A stretch of DNA of 12,422 bases from a bacterium (GTDB lineage: Bacteria; CAIWAD01), in assembly GCA_030685015.1 (NCBI GenBank), contig JAUXWS010000074.1:1-12422 (forward strand), given 5' to 3'. The position numbers and the translations under genes are program-made. Below are positions 1 through 10,176 of the stretch, in pieces (position 1 is the first letter of the stretch; the number at the start of each line of letters is the position of its first letter). The notes under the pieces were generated by a model. The model ran no database searches. It saw only the letters and a list, made by a program, of their open reading frames with translations, and was not told where the DNA came from.

Positions 1-18
1 TAGGGCCCTCTGTCCGAC
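1..18 (+). repeat. 18-bp direct repeat, copy 1
   Basis: Reads TAGGGCCCTCTGTCCGAC. It matches positions 334-351 at 17 of 18 bases (C/T difference at base 14). A shorter third copy, TAGGGCCCT, lies at 374-382. It marks the start of the first composite intergenic unit and probably continues to the left of the window. Confidence 0.75.
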
Positions 19-26
19 AAGGCCTT

Positions 27-42
27 GCGGCGCAAGCGCCGC
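27..42. repeat. GC hairpin in composite unit 1
   Basis: Perfect inverted repeat GCGGCG-CAAG-CGCCGC with 6-bp arms and a 4-nt loop. It occupies the same place in unit 1 as the hairpin at 352-369 does in unit 2. Confidence 0.6.
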
Positions 43-51
43 CCTTTCCCA

Positions 52-73
52 CTTTCTTTTCGCGAAAAGAAAG
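52..73. repeat. 22-bp perfect palindrome, TTTCTTTT/AAAAGAAA type
   Basis: CTTTCTTTT (52-60), CGCG (61-64) and AAAAGAAAG (65-73) form an uninterrupted palindrome. After one A/C mismatch the pairing resumes with CCC (48-50) against GGG (75-77). Its A/T-rich arms stand out from the GC-rich surroundings. The element at 412-439 is its counterpart in unit 2. It could act as a bidirectional terminator or as the core of a repeat family. Confidence 0.8.
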
Positions 74-226
74 CGGGGCAAAGAAAAGGCTCGCAGACCC
101 TGCCCAGCCATGGCGGTGACACGCGCGGGGTCGCGCGACTGTGGACTTTGTGGGCACCGGCTCTTCGGCCTCTGCGCGCGCATACGCTCAGACGCCGCGC
201 TGCGCGCGACGTCCCGGCGTGGCGCG

Positions 227-248
227 CGCGACGAGGCCGAAAACAAGG
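227..248. repeat. 22-bp direct repeat, copy 1
   Basis: The stretch beginning CGCGACGAGGCC and ending AAAACAAGG is identical to positions 475-496. On the minus strand it reads CCTTGTTTTCGG followed by CCTCGTCGCG. An exact 22-bp match 248 bp apart is unlikely by chance and supports the two-unit reading of this region. Confidence 0.8.
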
Positions 249-257
249 TTTGGATAT

Positions 258-279
258 GCCAGGTGAAGCTTCGCCTGGC
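258..279. repeat. Hairpin centred on AAGCTT
   Basis: GCCAGGTGAA (258-267) pairs with TTCGCCTGGC (270-279) across a GC centre. All ten positions pair, counting one G-T wobble. A second, smaller hairpin, AGGCC-GAA-GGCCT, follows at 289-301. Confidence 0.6.
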
Positions 280-333
280 GTGACGTGAAGGCCGAAGGCC
301 TGAACCAACTGCCATGGTGTCCGCATAAAGTGA

Positions 334-351
334 TAGGGCCCTCTGTTCGAC
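334..351 (+). repeat. 18-bp direct repeat, copy 2
   Basis: Reads TAGGGCCCTCTGTTCGAC and differs from positions 1-18 at a single base. It opens the second composite unit. Confidence 0.75.
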
Positions 352-369
352 GGCGGCCGTGAGGCCGCC
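352..369. repeat. GC hairpin with GTGA loop in composite unit 2
   Basis: GGCGGCC (352-358), GTGA (359-362) and GGCCGCC (363-369) give a 7-bp perfect stem. Read on the plus strand, the loop is a GNRA-type tetraloop. Compared with 27-42, the pairing is kept while the stem sequence differs, which suggests that structure matters. Confidence 0.6.
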
Positions 370-411
370 TAGTTAGGGCCCTGAATGTCTTGGAGAGGGC
401 TTTCTTTGGGA

Positions 412-439
412 ACCTTTCTTTCGCCCGTGAAAGAAAGGT
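412..439. repeat. 11-bp-arm inverted repeat, TTTCTTT/AAAGAAA type
   Basis: ACCTTTCTTTC (412-422) and GAAAGAAAGGT (429-439) are perfect complements around GCCCGT. A further TTTCTTTGGG at 401-410 precedes it. It is the unit-2 counterpart of the palindrome at 52-73. Confidence 0.75.
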
Positions 440-447
440 GCAAGAGC

Positions 448-463
448 GCGGCGCTGGCGCCGC
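448..463. repeat. GC inverted repeat
   Basis: GCGGCGC-TG-GCGCCGC, 7-bp perfect arms with a 2-nt centre, lies between the TTTCTTT element and the second 22-bp direct repeat. Confidence 0.5.
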
Positions 464-474
464 AAGTCCAGCGT

Positions 475-496
475 CGCGACGAGGCCGAAAACAAGG
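475..496. repeat. 22-bp direct repeat, copy 2
   Basis: Identical over 22 bases to positions 227-248. It lies about 60 bases beyond the deoC stop in the direction of deoC transcription. Confidence 0.8.
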
Positions 497-520
497 ACCC
501 TGGGGCAAACCCCCATCCCG

Positions 521-545
521 GCCTTCCCCCTGGCAGGGGGAAGGC
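521..545 (-). terminator. Strong hairpin just after deoC; possible terminator
   Basis: CCTTCCCCCTG (522-532) and CAGGGGGAAGG (534-544) are perfect complements, extended by a G-C pair at 521/545. The hairpin starts 14 nt after the deoC stop in the direction of transcription. No U-run follows it directly; the first T-rich stretch on the minus strand, CCTTGTTTTCGG, is inside the 475-496 repeat. It may therefore be a weak or Rho-assisted terminator, an mRNA 3'-end stabiliser, or simply another member of the hairpin repeats. Confidence 0.45.
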
Positions 546-558
546 GCATCGTGCGCCG

Positions 559-1455
559 TCAGTAACCGCCGCCGGCGGCCGGCTTGCCGCCCACGATCGC
601 CACGCTGGCCGATGCGCCCAGGCGATCCGCCCCCGACTCGATGAACTGCACGGCGTCGGTCAGGCTGCGCACCCCGCCCGAGGCCTTGACGCCCATGCCG
701 GCCCCCACCACCCGGCGCATGAGGGCGACATGCTCGGTGGTGGCGCCGCCGCTGGAGAAGCCGGTCGAGGTCTTGACGAAATCCGCCCCGGCGGCGCGGC
801 AGGCCAGGCAGGCCTTGACGATCTGCTCGTCGCTGAGCAGGCAGGTCTCGAGGATGACCTTCTTCACGATGCGCGGGCCGGCCGCCTCCACCACGGCGCG
901 CACGTCCTCCTCCACCGCCCGCCATTCACCGTCCCGGGCCAGCCCCACGTTGAGGACCATGTCCACCTCGCGGGCGCCGTCGCGCACGGCCTGGCGGGCT
1001 TCAGCGGCCTTGGCCTTGCTCGTGGTGGCGCCCAGGGGAAAGCCGATGACGGTGCAGACCTTGACCGTGCTGCCCTCCAGCAGGCGGGTGCAGAGGGCGA
1101 CCCAGCAGGGGTTGATGCAGACGCTGGCGAAGTGGTGTTCGCGGGCCTCGCGGCAGAGGCGCTCGATATCGGCGCGTCCGGCGTCGGCCTTGAGCAGGGT
1201 GTGGTCGATCATGCGGGCGATCTCGCCCCGCACGCGGTCCAGCAGGCCCAGGGTGCAACTGACGCGGTCGGCGCCGCAGGCCAGGACACGATCCGGCTGG
1301 TAGGCGGGGGGCGGCGCCGCGGTGTGGCGGGACGCCCCCGTCACGGCGCAGGGCTGCTCCGCCGGCGCGGGCAGGGGACGGGCGGCCGACGCCGCTCTCG
1401 CCCCGCGCTGCTCCAGCACTTCCTTGACAATGCGGTCGACAATATCCCCGCTCAT
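559..1455 (-). CDS. deoC: Deoxyribose-phosphate aldolase with an N-terminal encapsulation-peptide-like extension
   Basis: Class I aldolase (DERA) that splits 2-deoxyribose-5-phosphate into acetaldehyde and glyceraldehyde-3-phosphate. From the start I chose the protein is 298 residues, with the catalytic TIM barrel from about residue 77. The Schiff-base lysine is K228 in FVKTSTGF, the proton-relay lysine is K257 in GVKASGGVR, and the acidic partner is D165 in EVDMVLN, so it looks active. The first 76 residues are extra compared with plain DeoC of about 220-260 residues. They comprise an amphipathic helix, MSGDIVDRIVKEVLEQRG, and an Ala/Pro-rich linker, the layout of microcompartment cargo tags. 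An ATG at 1467 is in frame, but only the ATG at 1455 has a Shine-Dalgarno-like GGGTGAGG just before it. That signal overlaps the eutN stop, suggesting translational coupling. It is the last gene of the operon. The enzyme identity is secure; the targeting role is inference. Confidence 0.93.
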   Translation of the reverse strand: MSGDIVDRIVKEVLEQRGARAASAARPLPAPAEQPCAVTGASRHTAAPPPAYQPDRVLACGADRVSCTLGLLDRVRGEIARMIDHTLLKADAGRADIERLCREAREHHFASVCINPCWVALCTRLLEGSTVKVCTVIGFPLGATTSKAKAAEARQAVRDGAREVDMVLNVGLARDGEWRAVEEDVRAVVEAAGPRIVKKVILETCLLSDEQIVKACLACRAAGADFVKTSTGFSSGGATTEHVALMRRVVGAGMGVKASGGVRSLTDAVQFIESGADRLGASASVAIVGGKPAAGGGY

Positions 1456-1459
1456 GGCC

Positions 1460-1732
1460 TCACCCATCGATGTGGAAAGCGTCCACCACCCCCACGATGA
1501 GGGCCTGGACGGGAATCCGCTGATTGTCCAGCGCCAGGCGGGCGCTGCCCCCTTCCTTGTTCACCAGGACGCGGTCGCCGATGCCGGCGTCCACCGTGTC
1601 CAGGGCGATGCTCTCCGCGCCACGGGGCTGCCCGTCCAGGCCCAGGGGACGCACCAGCAGCAGCTTGTGCCCCTTGAACTCGGCATGCTTCTCGGTGGAG
1701 ACCACCTCGCCCGTCACCAGCGCGATCTGCAT
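1460..1732 (-). CDS. eutN: EutN/CcmL-family microcompartment vertex protein
   Basis: A 90-residue protein covering a single EutN/CcmL/BMC-P domain. In known shells this family forms pentamers that close the vertices of the icosahedral bacterial microcompartment. Visible family marks are the start MQIALVTGEVVSTEKH, the GHKLLLVRPLG strand, the glycine turn DAGIGDRVLV, the AR pair in GGSARLAL, and the ending ALIVGVVDAF. The start is supported by AAAGGATGG about 6 nt upstream. Its stop is read through by the upstream end of the deoC coding region, and the gap to glmM is 80 bp. A lone EutN does not make a shell, so hexameric BMC-H proteins must be encoded elsewhere if a compartment exists. The name EutN is used for the family; no ethanolamine genes are present. 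Confidence 0.9.
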   Translation of the reverse strand: MQIALVTGEVVSTEKHAEFKGHKLLLVRPLGLDGQPRGAESIALDTVDAGIGDRVLVNKEGGSARLALDNQRIPVQALIVGVVDAFHIDG

Positions 1733-1812: not shown

Positions 1813-3168
1813 TCAGCTCTCCAGCGCGCGTCCCACCCGCTCCACCAGGCCCTGCGCCACCTGGTCGCTCAAAGCCTCGGCGAAGATGCGCAGGATTGGC
1901 TCCGTGTTGGAGGCGCGAATCTGCACCCAGGCCGGGCCGCCTCCCGCATCGAGGAGGAACTTGAGGCCGTCCGTCTCGTCCAGGCGGGCCTCGGGCAGGG
2001 CCTCCCGGACCTTGAGCAGGGCCAGGGACGGATCCATCACTCCCAGTTCCAGCTTGTGCTTGATCATGGCGTAGGTGGGCAGCTCCTCGCGCAGGACGCG
2101 CAGCTCCCGTCCGCTCTCGAGCAGGTATTGCAGAATGAGAGCCATTCCCACCAGGGCGTCGCGACCCAGGTGGAGGTCGCGCAGAATGACGCCGCCGTTG
2201 CCTTCGCCCCCGATGGCGGAGCCCAGCTGGCGCATGCGCACGCTGACGTTGATCTCCCCCACCTTGGTGCGGTGCAGGTCGACCCCCGCCTCGCGGGCCA
2301 CGTCGTCCAGGATCTGGCTGCTGGAGACGTTGGCGACCAGGGGGGATGCCTCCTGCCGCAGCACGTGGCGCGCCGCCAGGGCCAGGGTCAGTTCCTCGCC
2401 CAGGGGACGGCCTTTGCCGTCGACCAGGGCCAGGCGGTCGCCATCGGGATCCAGGGCGAAACCCAGATCGAAGGGGCTGCTGCGCAAGGTCTCGCAGAGC
2501 GCGCCCAGGTTCTCCGGGGTGGGTTCCGGCCCGCGGCTGAAGAGGCCGCTGTCCTCCACGCCCAGTTTGACCACCTCGCAGCCCAGCTCCTGCAGGAGGC
2601 GGGGCGCCAGGACGCGCCCGGCGCCGTTGACGCAATCCACCGCCACGCGGAAGCCCCGCTTGCGCAGGGCCGGCACATCGAGCAGGCCCAGCGCCAGAAT
2701 GCGCTTGACGTGGGCCTCGCCGGCGTCGGGGATGGCGTCCAGGCAGCCGAGGCGATCCCAGGAGACGCAGTGCGGACCGCGGGCGGCAATCTCCAGATGA
2801 CGCCGGCTCTGCTCGGGGTCCAGGAAGAGGCCGTCGCCATGGAAGAACTTGAGGGCGTTCCACTCCACCGGATTGTGGCTGGCCGTGATGCAGACACCGC
2901 CGGCGGCGCCCAAATCCTCCACCAGCACGGCCACCGTGGGGGTGGGCACCACGCCGGCGTCCAGCACGCGGCAGCCCGCCGCCGTGAGGCCGGCCACCAC
3001 CGCCTGGCGCACCATGGGTCCGCTTGGACGCGTGTCGCGGCCCAGCACCACAGGGCCGCCGCCGCAGTACTCGCCGAAGGCCGTCGCATAGCGGGCCACC
3101 ACCTCCGGACTGAACCCCTCGCCCACCACGCCCCGGATCCCGGAGATGGAGATCATGAGGCGGCTCAC
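1813..3168 (-). CDS. glmM: Alpha-D-phosphohexomutase, GlmM/phosphomannomutase type
   Basis: A 451-residue cytosolic mutase that moves phosphate between C1 and C6 of a hexose phosphate. The best guess is glucosamine-6-P to glucosamine-1-P for cell-wall precursor synthesis. All four active-site loops are intact: phosphoserine loop TASHNP (S97), metal loop DPDGDR (240-245), sugar-binding loop GEGNGG (321-326) and phosphate loop RASNTEP (418-424). The GEGNGG loop is of the archaeal/Bacteroidetes type rather than the GGEQSGH type of classical bacterial GlmM. The GTG at 3168 overlaps the preceding stop by 4 bases (GTGA); an in-frame ATG at 3156 is an alternative start. Substrates cannot be read from sequence. 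Relatives in archaea act as phosphopentomutases, which would be striking next to deoC, so the symbol is provisional. Confidence 0.8.
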   Translation of the reverse strand: MSRLMISISGIRGVVGEGFSPEVVARYATAFGEYCGGGPVVLGRDTRPSGPMVRQAVVAGLTAAGCRVLDAGVVPTPTVAVLVEDLGAAGGVCITASHNPVEWNALKFFHGDGLFLDPEQSRRHLEIAARGPHCVSWDRLGCLDAIPDAGEAHVKRILALGLLDVPALRKRGFRVAVDCVNGAGRVLAPRLLQELGCEVVKLGVEDSGLFSRGPEPTPENLGALCETLRSSPFDLGFALDPDGDRLALVDGKGRPLGEELTLALAARHVLRQEASPLVANVSSSQILDDVAREAGVDLHRTKVGEINVSVRMRQLGSAIGGEGNGGVILRDLHLGRDALVGMALILQYLLESGRELRVLREELPTYAMIKHKLELGVMDPSLALLKVREALPEARLDETDGLKFLLDAGGGPAWVQIRASNTEPILRIFAEALSDQVAQGLVERVGRALES

Positions 3169-8382: not shown

Positions 8383-10176
8383 TCAGGTGAGGAGGGGAAG
8401 TGCCCGGCAGGCCAACCAGGCTTCGGCCAGGGCAGCCAGACGAGCGCGCTGGGTGGCCACGGCGGGGCGCAGGCTGGCCAGGTTCTCATCGGGGTGGGGC
8501 GGCCGCTCCGCCAACCGCTCCAGGCCGTCCAGCTCCGCCTCCAGGTTGCGCCTCATCTCGTCCAGGCCGCGGCGGCTGGACTCGCTGCCGTCATCCCGCT
8601 CGATCAGCCGCTCGTAGTAGTCCACGCTGATCACCAGCTCGGCGGCCAGGTGGTGCGGCCGCTCGGACCCGACCAGCTGGACGCGCCCATAGATGTGGTC
8701 CACCATCTCGTCCAGGCTGTAGTTGCGCGTGAACCAGGCCAGGTTCGGCCCCGGACAGACGGCCACAGGCAGGGCCTTCTCCGTGGCGCCCAGCTTGACC
8801 AGGGCGCCGTTGCCCAGATGGTCGCAGATGCAGGACTTGACCAGCACGGCGGCGCGCCCCGCCTCGTCCTCCGGGGCCAGACTGGCGAGCTTCTGGCGCT
8901 GGAACTCGGCCGAGGCGGTGCAGAGGGGACTTTCCCCGAATTCCAGGTTGGAGACGAGGTGCCCCTTGGGACAGGGCGAGCCCGGCCGGCCGCGCTCGGC
9001 CCGCTCCCGGCCCCACTCCTCGCTCGAACTGCCGCGCAGGTTGTTGAAGGGAATGCCCAGGGGCGAGGAGTCGCTCAGGTAGAAATCTTCGGGGCCGGCC
9101 GCGGCCAGCTGGTTCCGCGTGGCGTCGTCCAGCAAGGTCACTTCCGGCACCAGAAGAAAGGGACTGGCCCAGCCGGTGGCGTCCACCTGGTAGTCCTCGT
9201 GCAGGCGGCGGGCCTCCCCGTGCACGCCCAGGCCGCCCTGGACGGTGAGGCGGCTGCGGCAGGCCTGCTCGGGCAGGGCCTCTTCCCGGCCCTGGGAGCG
9301 GTGGAAGGCCTCGACGAGGGGACGCAGTTCCGTGCAGAGCTGGTCCCGGCGTTCCCGGAACTCCGCCAGCAGGCCGGAGAGCAGGCGCCCGCCCGCCCCG
9401 AAGGCATGGCCGCCGCAATTGAGTCCGGATTCGACGCGATACTCGTGGACCTCGAGACCCAGGCCGGCCAGGATGCGCCCCTGGGCCAGGGCGGAGCGGA
9501 AGTCGCTCACCTTGATGATGATGCGCTTGCGCAGGGTGCCGCCCGCGTCCCGGTAGAAGTCGCGGAACTGGGCCATGTACCGGTAGAGGCGCTTGTTGAG
9601 GCCGGCTGAGACGACCAGGGCCGATTCCAGGCTGCTGTTGGCGAAGCCGCGCAGGGCGGCCATGGCATCGTTGAACTCGGCGGGCAGGGTGTGGCCCTGG
9701 GCGTCCTGGTTGCTCCGGTCCAGCTTGGCCATGATGTTGACGTCGATGGAGCCGGCCGTGATGCGCGCCTCCAGTTCGCGCTGTCGCTCCGCGCAGCCGG
9801 GGGTGTCCCGCAATTCCAGCAGTCTCAGCCAGGCCTGGCGCAGGGGCGACTCGTCGGGCAAGAGGCGGAAGTAGCGCTCCTTGTCGTTGGCCTGGAAGAA
9901 GGGCTGGCGGCGGATCTCATCCACCTTCTCCTGCACCAGCTCGTTGAGGAGATCCAGATAGGCCGTGATGCGGCGGGCGCGGCTGTCCTCCTCGCGGCGC
10001 GCGATGGCCGTGAAGGCCCGGTCGAAGCGGGCACAGAGCTGGCGGCGCATCTGTTCGATCAGGGTGTCGTCCACCAGCGAAAGGCAGCTGTCGATGCCCA
10101 GCGGGGCCACGGCCAAGGGCGTGGCAATGCTGAAGCCTGTCCCCATCACGGGGATGTGGAAGGTGTGGGGGGACAT
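8383..10176 (-). CDS. Conserved protein of unknown function, 597 residues, cysteine-containing
   Basis: I cannot assign a function. The sequence resembles, from memory, a family of uncharacterised proteins common in Bacteroidetes that begin FHIPVMG. Striking blocks are THTFHIPVMGTGFSIATPLA at residues 4-21, ITAGSIDVNIMAKLDR (139-154), ESGLNCGGHAFG (249-260, C254), TVQGGLG (311-317), DATGWASPFLLVPE (332-345), SPLGIPFNNLRG (371-382), and a C-terminal cysteine set: C402 (CPKGH), C419, C449, C451 (CICDHLGNG) and C474 (CPGPN). The glycine turns suggest an alpha/beta, perhaps TIM-barrel, core; the late cysteines could bind metal or an iron-sulfur cluster. Both are guesses. There is no signal peptide or membrane segment. 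The start has a modest GGCAGG upstream, and its leader holds a hairpin at 10209-10239. It appears to be a single-gene transcript. Confidence 0.8.
   Translation of the reverse strand: MSPHTFHIPVMGTGFSIATPLAVAPLGIDSCLSLVDDTLIEQMRRQLCARFDRAFTAIARREEDSRARRITAYLDLLNELVQEKVDEIRRQPFFQANDKERYFRLLPDESPLRQAWLRLLELRDTPGCAERQRELEARITAGSIDVNIMAKLDRSNQDAQGHTLPAEFNDAMAALRGFANSSLESALVVSAGLNKRLYRYMAQFRDFYRDAGGTLRKRIIIKVSDFRSALAQGRILAGLGLEVHEYRVESGLNCGGHAFGAGGRLLSGLLAEFRERRDQLCTELRPLVEAFHRSQGREEALPEQACRSRLTVQGGLGVHGEARRLHEDYQVDATGWASPFLLVPEVTLLDDATRNQLAAAGPEDFYLSDSSPLGIPFNNLRGSSSEEWGRERAERGRPGSPCPKGHLVSNLEFGESPLCTASAEFQRQKLASLAPEDEAGRAAVLVKSCICDHLGNGALVKLGATEKALPVAVCPGPNLAWFTRNYSLDEMVDHIYGRVQLVGSERPHHLAAELVISVDYYERLIERDDGSESSRRGLDEMRRNLEAELDGLERLAERPPHPDENLASLRPAVATQRARLAALAEAWLACRALPLLT

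What the first reader, a model, noticed from the sequence alone, without database searches (positions are those of the whole stretch)
559..1732. DeoC with an encapsulation-peptide-like N-terminus, coupled to a BMC vertex protein
Seen: DeoC starts MSGDIVDRIVKEVLEQRG, with hydrophobic residues at 5, 6, 9, 10, 13 and 14 (one face of a helix). An Ala/Pro-rich linker of about 55 residues joins it to an intact aldolase, and its start overlaps the end of an EutN/CcmL gene. Known: bacterial microcompartment cargo enzymes carry such terminal amphipathic helices on flexible linkers, EutN/CcmL pentamers cap shells, and a sugar-phosphate-utilising (SPU) BMC class includes DeoC. Inferred: this aldolase is packaged so that its acetaldehyde product is contained, in a flagellated lineage outside the classic model organisms.
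Basis: partly seen in the sequence, partly recalled or inferred. Interest (0 to 1): 0.75.

Follow-up and report, generated by a model that had tools for sequence, protein, structure and literature searches.

The report
Tagged aldolase of scattered bacterial organelle
A DNA-sugar-cleaving enzyme in an unnamed bacterial phylum carries a packaging tag and sits beside an organelle-shell gene, and the same tagged enzyme recurs in bacteria whose protein organelles had no known job, suggesting that these organelles digest deoxyribose from DNA.

Summary
The finding holds and reaches beyond its window. DeoC (559-1455, minus) is an intact deoxyribose-phosphate aldolase with an N-terminal helix tag, a variable linker, and a BMC vertex gene (1460-1732) 4 nt upstream. 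The genome also encodes two BMC-H, a PduT-like BMC-T, four BMC-P in all, an acetylating acetaldehyde dehydrogenase, PduL, phosphopentomutase and a BMC-type RpiB, scattered over at least seven contigs. The aldehyde dehydrogenase ends in nearly the motif (IDRIVKE) that begins DeoC; a pattern for it occurs three times in 3.6 Mb, twice at these two termini. All 32 extended DeoCs tested lie in genomes with shell genes (against 7 of 18 without the extension). The same set recurs in Ignavibacteria, Calditrichaceae and KSB1, with conserved PGM-BMC-P-DeoC-DeoA and DeoB-BMC-P-BMC-P units. Such dispersed ('FRAG') BMCs were described in 2021 as lacking an obvious signature enzyme. Best reading: tagged DeoC is that enzyme, and FRAG-like BMCs of this group are scattered SPU-type organelles for deoxyribose 5-phosphate. 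Packaging is inferred, not shown. Two reader details are wrong: the genes do not overlap at the stated start, and the variable linker is about 34 residues, not 55.

The parts
559..1455 (-). deoC: deoxyribose-5-phosphate aldolase with encapsulation-peptide-like N-terminus (298 aa)
   Evidence: TIGR00126 272.8 bits; the only DeoC match in the genome; closest solved structures are DeoC, matching residues 79-295
1405..1455 (-). Encapsulation-peptide-like helix, residues 1-17 (MSGDIVDRIVKEVLEQR)
   Evidence: conserved in four genomes of the phylum and in pattern across phyla; AF2 helix 3-24; same motif at the AldDH C-terminus
1303..1404 (-). Variable Ala/Pro-rich linker, residues 18-51
   Evidence: 3-13 identities of about 32 among congeners; AF2 pLDDT under 50 at 29-49
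1222..1302 (-). Conserved segment between linker and barrel, residues 52-78 (contains GADR)
   Evidence: 20-24 of 27 identical among relatives; G61, A62 and R64 invariant in 25 sequences
589..1221 (-). Aldolase (TIM barrel) domain, residues 79-289
   Evidence: TIGR00126 residues 79-287; AF2 mostly pLDDT over 90
1460..1732 (-). BMC-P vertex (EutN/CcmL) shell protein, 90 aa, 4 nt upstream of deoC
   Evidence: PF03319 94.3 bits; adjacent to deoC in G000, G002, G003, G004 and Calditrichaceae L027
1813..3168 (-). PGM/PMM-family phosphomutase upstream of the BMC-P gene
   Evidence: PF02878, PF02879, PF02880, PF00408; same gene order in the sister genomes and in Calditrichaceae L027

Best explanation
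This DeoC is the signature enzyme of a bacterial microcompartment whose genes are scattered round the chromosome. Its N-terminal helix acts as an encapsulation peptide that brings the aldolase into a shell of BMC-H, PduT-like BMC-T and BMC-P proteins. [quoted passage not shown] An acetylating acetaldehyde dehydrogenase, carried in by a C-terminal version of the same motif, and PduL turn acetaldehyde into acetyl-CoA and acetyl-phosphate; an RnfC/PduS-like protein encoded beside the BMC-T may handle electrons. A BMC-type RpiB and PduL carry a module related to EutQ residues 2-47, the part that docks EutQ on the shell. Shown by sequence: genes, tags, synteny and co-occurrence. Inferred: encapsulation, flux, containment of acetaldehyde. 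The same set in Ignavibacteria, Calditrichaceae and KSB1 implies that FRAG-like BMCs of this group are dispersed SPU-type organelles.
For: Shell genes: BMC-H x2, tandem BMC-T (closest to PduT, TIGR02526) and BMC-P x4. AldDH hits TIGR02518, acetaldehyde dehydrogenase (acetylating), at 599.6 bits (just under its cut-off of 620.1), and its closest solved structure is an acetylating acetaldehyde dehydrogenase; PduL is next to it. AldDH ends SDEEIDRIVKEFKG and DeoC begins SGDIVDRIVKEVLEQR; a degenerate DNA pattern of the motif has 3 hits in 3.61 Mb (these two termini plus one internal site) and 0 for the reversed control. The AldDH C-terminal tag recurs in the 21 AldDHs of the group that were checked, in weaker form in two or three. 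32/32 extended against 7/18 unextended DeoCs lie in BMC genomes, Fisher P=8.5e-7. DeoB-BMC-P-BMC-P and PGM-BMC-P-DeoC-DeoA units are conserved across phyla. DeoC is single-copy in nearly all of these genomes. The RpiB N-domain matches EutQ, E=7.7e-13 in a small set; EutQ 9-41 binds the shell (PMC12487888). The EutC tag residues I6, V10, V13, M14 said there to contact EutQ correspond to V6, V10, V13, L14 here.
Against: No localisation, binding or activity data. Helix amphipathicity alone is not significant. The 32/32 co-occurrence is not phylogenetically independent: 2 independent contrasts on supported branches (5 on all), sign test not significant. No pyrimidine-nucleoside phosphorylase was found in this genome, although it follows deoC in relatives. 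The tags are short, and in Ignavibacteria DeoC has no shell gene within 5 kb.
Confidence: 0.85

Rival explanations
1. The N-terminal extension is an oligomerisation or scaffold element of DeoC unrelated to the shell, and the neighbouring BMC-P gene is a chance neighbour; DeoC works in the cytosol.
For: Short helices can mediate self-association; encapsulation peptides themselves drive condensation in PduP work (PMC12339742). The hydrophobic moment alone is not significant.
Against: The extension occurs only in BMC genomes in the sample; a second core enzyme, AldDH, carries the same motif at the opposite terminus; BMC-P-DeoC adjacency is kept between this phylum and Calditrichaceae.
Confidence: 0.07
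2. It is simply an ordinary compact SPU locus broken up by draft assembly.
For: The enzyme set (DeoC, RpiB, acetylating AldDH, PduL) is that of SPU; the window contig ends 558 nt past deoC.
Against: The BMC-H pair, AldDH-PduL, the BMC-P pair and BMC-T lie inside contigs of 46-106 kb with no other BMC genes seen in the 18-20 kb examined around each; the same dispersal recurs in independent assemblies of other phyla.
Confidence: 0.04
3. The compartment's main substrate is something else (an unidentified aldehyde source) and DeoC is a secondary cargo.
For: Some SPU and HO genomes carry EUT-like satellite modules (PMC8217296); other signature enzymes (EutBC, diol dehydratase, glycyl-radical enzymes) were not searched for here; an ACT-DUF711 unit next to a BMC-P gene is unexplained.
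Against: AldDH is of the acetaldehyde type, matching DeoC's product; BMC-P pairs sit with DeoB, whose product is DeoC's substrate, in several phyla; DeoC is nearly always single-copy and tagged in this group.
Confidence: 0.12

Closest known systems
SPU (sugar-phosphate utilisation) BMC (Axen 2014 PMC4207490; Sutter 2021 PMC8217296)
   Same: DeoC aldolase, RpiB-type isomerase, AldDH that would take acetaldehyde, PduL, PduS/RnfC-like protein
   Different: SPU enzymes and shell genes are clustered in one locus; here they are spread over at least seven contigs, and the AldDH carries its tag at the C-terminus
FRAG BMCs (Sutter 2021 PMC8217296)
   Same: Shell genes in up to six separate places, BMC-P triplet, found in Ignavibacteriae and related phyla
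   Different: Described as lacking an obvious signature enzyme; here a tagged DeoC, a tagged AldDH and DeoB- or DeoC-linked BMC-P genes supply one
HO BMC (Haliangium ochraceum; Sutter 2021)
   Same: The catalogue noted a remote DeoC with an EP-like N-terminal extension in some HO genomes
   Different: HO shell genes form a main locus plus satellites; membership in HO was not tested here
EUT encapsulation peptides and EutQ (E. coli, Salmonella)
   Same: The EutE N-terminus MNQQDIEQVVKAVL resembles the DeoC tag; EutC contact positions 6, 10, 13, 14 coincide; the EutQ N-terminal module recurs on RpiB and PduL
   Different: Different pathway; the EutQ cupin domain is not attached here

Membership tests
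Deoxyribose-phosphate aldolase (DERA, DeoC) | TIGR00126 match over cut-off, with Schiff-base Lys and catalytic Lys/Asp | tested here: met
   272.8 bits against 117.3; K228, K257 and D165 invariant
BMC encapsulation peptide | Terminal helix of about 15-20 residues with a hydrophobic face, joined by a poorly conserved linker | tested here: met
   AF2 helix 3-24 and disorder 29-49; hydrophobic positions 6, 9, 13, 14 conserved; variable linker. The hydrophobic moment alone was not significant
BMC encapsulation peptide | Directs cargo into shells | not testable with these tools
   needs co-expression and imaging
BMC vertex protein (BMC-P) | PF03319 domain over cut-off | tested here: met
   94.3 bits against 25
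SPU BMC | Both DeoC-type (PF01791) and RpiB-type (PF02502) enzymes | tested here: met
   PF01791, two PF02502 genes, one with a EutQ-like N-domain
SPU BMC | Enzymes and shell genes clustered in one locus | tested here: not met
   scattered over C21, C27, C36, C41, C74, C95 and C99
FRAG BMC | Shell genes in several genomic places, with a BMC-P triplet | tested here: met
   BMC-H on C21, BMC-T on C99, BMC-P on C36, C74 and C95, four BMC-P in all
FRAG BMC | Shell-protein types as assigned by the catalogue's own HMMs (BMC Caller) | not tested
   those HMMs were not available here

The most novel reading that the evidence does not exclude
FRAG BMCs of the Ignavibacteria/Calditrichota/KSB1 side of the bacterial tree, listed in 2021 as lacking an obvious signature enzyme, are dispersed deoxyribose-5-phosphate organelles. 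Cargo is loaded by two tag systems: helix tags on DeoC (N-terminal) and AldDH (C-terminal), and a EutQ-like shell-docking module on RpiB and PduL.
Probability: 0.68. Interest if true: 0.72.

Novelty: new variant of a known kind. Interest (0 to 1): 0.63.

Why it matters
Sutter et al. (2021) listed FRAG BMCs as metabolosomes without an obvious signature enzyme; because their genes are scattered, gene neighbourhood could not reveal the cargo. Here neighbourhood (BMC-P beside DeoC, BMC-P pairs beside DeoB) and shared terminal tags both point to deoxyribose 5-phosphate. That makes the function directly testable, for example in Melioribacter roseus (a MAG filed under that species has the tagged DeoC, the tagged AldDH, the BMC-type RpiB and the shell genes), and links organelles in several environmental phyla to the breakdown of DNA from dead cells. 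Searching by terminal tag rather than by locus could find the cargo of other dispersed compartments.

Tried and rejected
Hydrophobic-moment statistics as stand-alone proof: not significant (P 0.18 for the peptide, 0.11 for the family profile), so not used as evidence. Phylogenetically independent contrasts of extension against BMC: same direction or neutral, but too few (2 on supported branches) to reach significance. The third motif hit (C100) lies inside a hypothetical protein, residue 190 of a 240-residue frame, and was rejected as a tag. A DeoA gene was sought in the genome and in the window and not found. Rfam scan of the window: no match. A first attempt to find RpiB genes by hand-made motifs missed most of them and was replaced by phmmer.

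Full report
WHAT IS THERE. The window is the whole of contig C74 of a 3.61-Mb draft genome (97% complete). On the minus strand lie a PGM/PMM-family phosphomutase (1813-3168), a 90-aa BMC vertex protein (1460-1732; PF03319) and DeoC (559-1455). DeoC scores 272.8 bits against TIGR00126 (cut-off 117.3), aligned over residues 79-287; its nearest solved structures are deoxyribose-phosphate aldolases that match only from about residue 76-79 on. So residues 1-78 are an extension.

THE EXTENSION. Residues 1-17 (MSGDIVDRIVKEVLEQR) are conserved in two congeners (15/17 and 13/17 identical to the window) while residues 18-51 are not (13/32 and 9/33); the aldolase is about 89% identical. AlphaFold2 (25 sequences) puts a helix at 3-24, disorder at 29-49 and a confident barrel. 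Across 25 tagged DeoCs positions 6, 9, 13 and 14 are hydrophobic in at least 96%, position 10 in 84%, and 4, 7, 8, 11, 12 and 16 in 8% or fewer. The moment test by itself is not significant (P 0.18 and 0.11).

THE GENOME HAS A COMPARTMENT, IN PIECES. PF00936 finds two adjacent BMC-H genes on C21 and a tandem-domain, PduT-like BMC-T on C99 right after an RnfC-like protein. PF03319 finds four BMC-P genes: one here, two on C95 downstream of phosphopentomutase DeoB and a deoxyhypusine-synthase-like gene, and one on C36 before an ACT-domain protein and a DUF711 protein. An acetylating acetaldehyde dehydrogenase (TIGR02518, 599.6 bits, slightly below its cut-off of 620.1) and PduL are neighbours on C41. 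One of two RpiB genes, on C27, has an extra N-terminal domain. The C21, C36, C41, C95 and C99 sites lie inside contigs of 46-106 kb, and the 18-20 kb examined around each shows no other BMC genes, so the dispersal is not an assembly effect.

A SHARED TAG. The AldDH ends ...GKSGMSDEEIDRIVKEFKG after a variable linker. A degenerate DNA pattern for this motif occurs three times in the genome: at the DeoC N-terminus, at the AldDH C-terminus and once inside a hypothetical protein; the reversed control gives none. In Ignavibacteria, Kryptonia, Melioribacter, KSB1 and the sister genomes the AldDH keeps this C-terminal motif (for example ISEEEIQKIIKEF), with weaker forms in two or three members. The tree sets this AldDH clade apart from EutE-type enzymes of E. 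coli, Treponema and others, with an Anaerolineales SPU-locus enzyme on its side (some branches are long, so the outer placements are unsure).

CO-OCCURRENCE. A genome-contig scan gave 80 DeoC loci. Of the 50 whose genomes were tested, 32 have the extension. Thirty-one of those genomes have PF00936 shell genes, and the other (Bellilinea) has three EutN genes beside DeoC. Of 18 without the extension, 7 have shell genes over cut-off, all Firmicutes. Fisher P=8.5e-7, but relatedness is not removed; independent contrasts are too few to test. DeoC is single-copy in nearly all the group's genomes.

CONSERVED UNITS ACROSS PHYLA. PGM/PMM - BMC-P - tagged DeoC is shared by this phylum and Calditrichaceae, and in G003, G004 and Calditrichaceae a pyrimidine-nucleoside phosphorylase follows. 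DeoB - BMC-P - BMC-P recurs in Ignavibacteria, Rhodothermales, Calditrichaceae and this phylum, in G000 and G003 with a deoxyhypusine-synthase-like gene in between. A BMC-H pair, the second with a conserved C-terminal motif, is also shared. In three Melioribacteraceae/Ignavibacteriales genomes DeoC lies about 8-12 kb from the BMC-H pair on the same contig. These tie the shell to the route nucleoside -> deoxyribose 1-phosphate -> deoxyribose 5-phosphate -> acetaldehyde + glyceraldehyde 3-phosphate (established pathway of the Deo enzymes).

A SECOND TAG. The extra N-terminal domain of the BMC-type RpiB matches E. coli EutQ residues 2-47 (E=7.7e-13 in a 38-sequence set), the EutT N-terminus, and the C-terminal part of this genome's PduL; Pfam has no model for it. 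AlphaFold2 folds it with confidence and joins it to RpiB by a disordered stretch. In Salmonella, EutQ 9-41 binds the shell and EutQ 62-99 binds cargo tags; EutC residues I6, V10, V13 and M14 make the contacts (PMC12487888), the positions of V6, V10, V13 and L14 here. So RpiB and PduL may dock on the shell by this module while DeoC and AldDH follow by helix tags. This step is inference.

COMPARISON WITH WHAT IS KNOWN. SPU BMCs are defined by DeoC plus RpiB in one locus (PMC4207490; PMC8217296). FRAG BMCs have scattered shell genes and a BMC-P triplet, occur in Ignavibacteriae and neighbours, and were said to lack an obvious signature enzyme (PMC8217296). Axen 2014 noted BMC-P genes of Melioribacter in five loci and a Caldithrix locus without a signature enzyme. 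The 2021 catalogue also noted remote DeoC with EP-like extensions in HO genomes. So a tagged DeoC is not new as such; its link to dispersed BMCs of this group, with DeoB- and DeoC-linked vertex genes and the matching AldDH tag, was not found in the open literature searched here. That library holds open-licence papers only, and the catalogue's supplementary data were not readable.

VERDICT. Packaging is inferred at about 0.85; the wider FRAG assignment at about 0.68. Novelty: new variant of a known kind.

Noticed in passing
L172:6409-7053(-) (G000:C27), and RpiB genes in L174-L190: A ~45-residue module (LITExdV...ITPxARD) at the N-terminus of BMC-type RpiB is homologous to the N-termini of E. 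coli EutQ and EutT and to the C-terminal part of this genome's PduL; Pfam has no model for it.
   Followed up: partly
L009:12226-12732(+); L198-L204: The second BMC-H of the tandem pair has a variable linker and a conserved C-terminal motif (VHKLRxLARxxxxFPIxGREISxANRxELL), SAP/Rho_N-like by eye, with no Pfam match; shared by this phylum and Ignavibacteria.
   Followed up: partly
L011:6266-8410(-) (G000:C36): A BMC-P gene followed by an ACT-domain protein with a ~60-aa N-terminal extension starting MAISEATIRELTRKAIDELG and a DUF711 protein; role in the compartment unexplained.
   Followed up: no
L010:9967-10944(-) (G000:C95); L149, L151: A deoxyhypusine-synthase-family gene next to the BMC-P pair in G000, G002 and G003 (between DeoB and the pair in G000 and G003), not in G004; the reason is unknown.
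   Followed up: no
window 1-558: Downstream of deoC the contig ends in DNA with short direct and inverted repeats; no DeoA here although it follows deoC in relatives, and no match was found elsewhere in the genome.
   Followed up: partly
L026, L029, L041, L042 DeoC N-terminal region: In Ignavibacteria and relatives the linker between tag and aldolase is Cys-rich (CxxC-type), unlike the Ala/Pro linker here; possibly metal-binding.
   Followed up: no
window 8383-10176(-): A 597-aa open reading frame next to the flagellar genes has no Pfam match at E 0.001.
   Followed up: no
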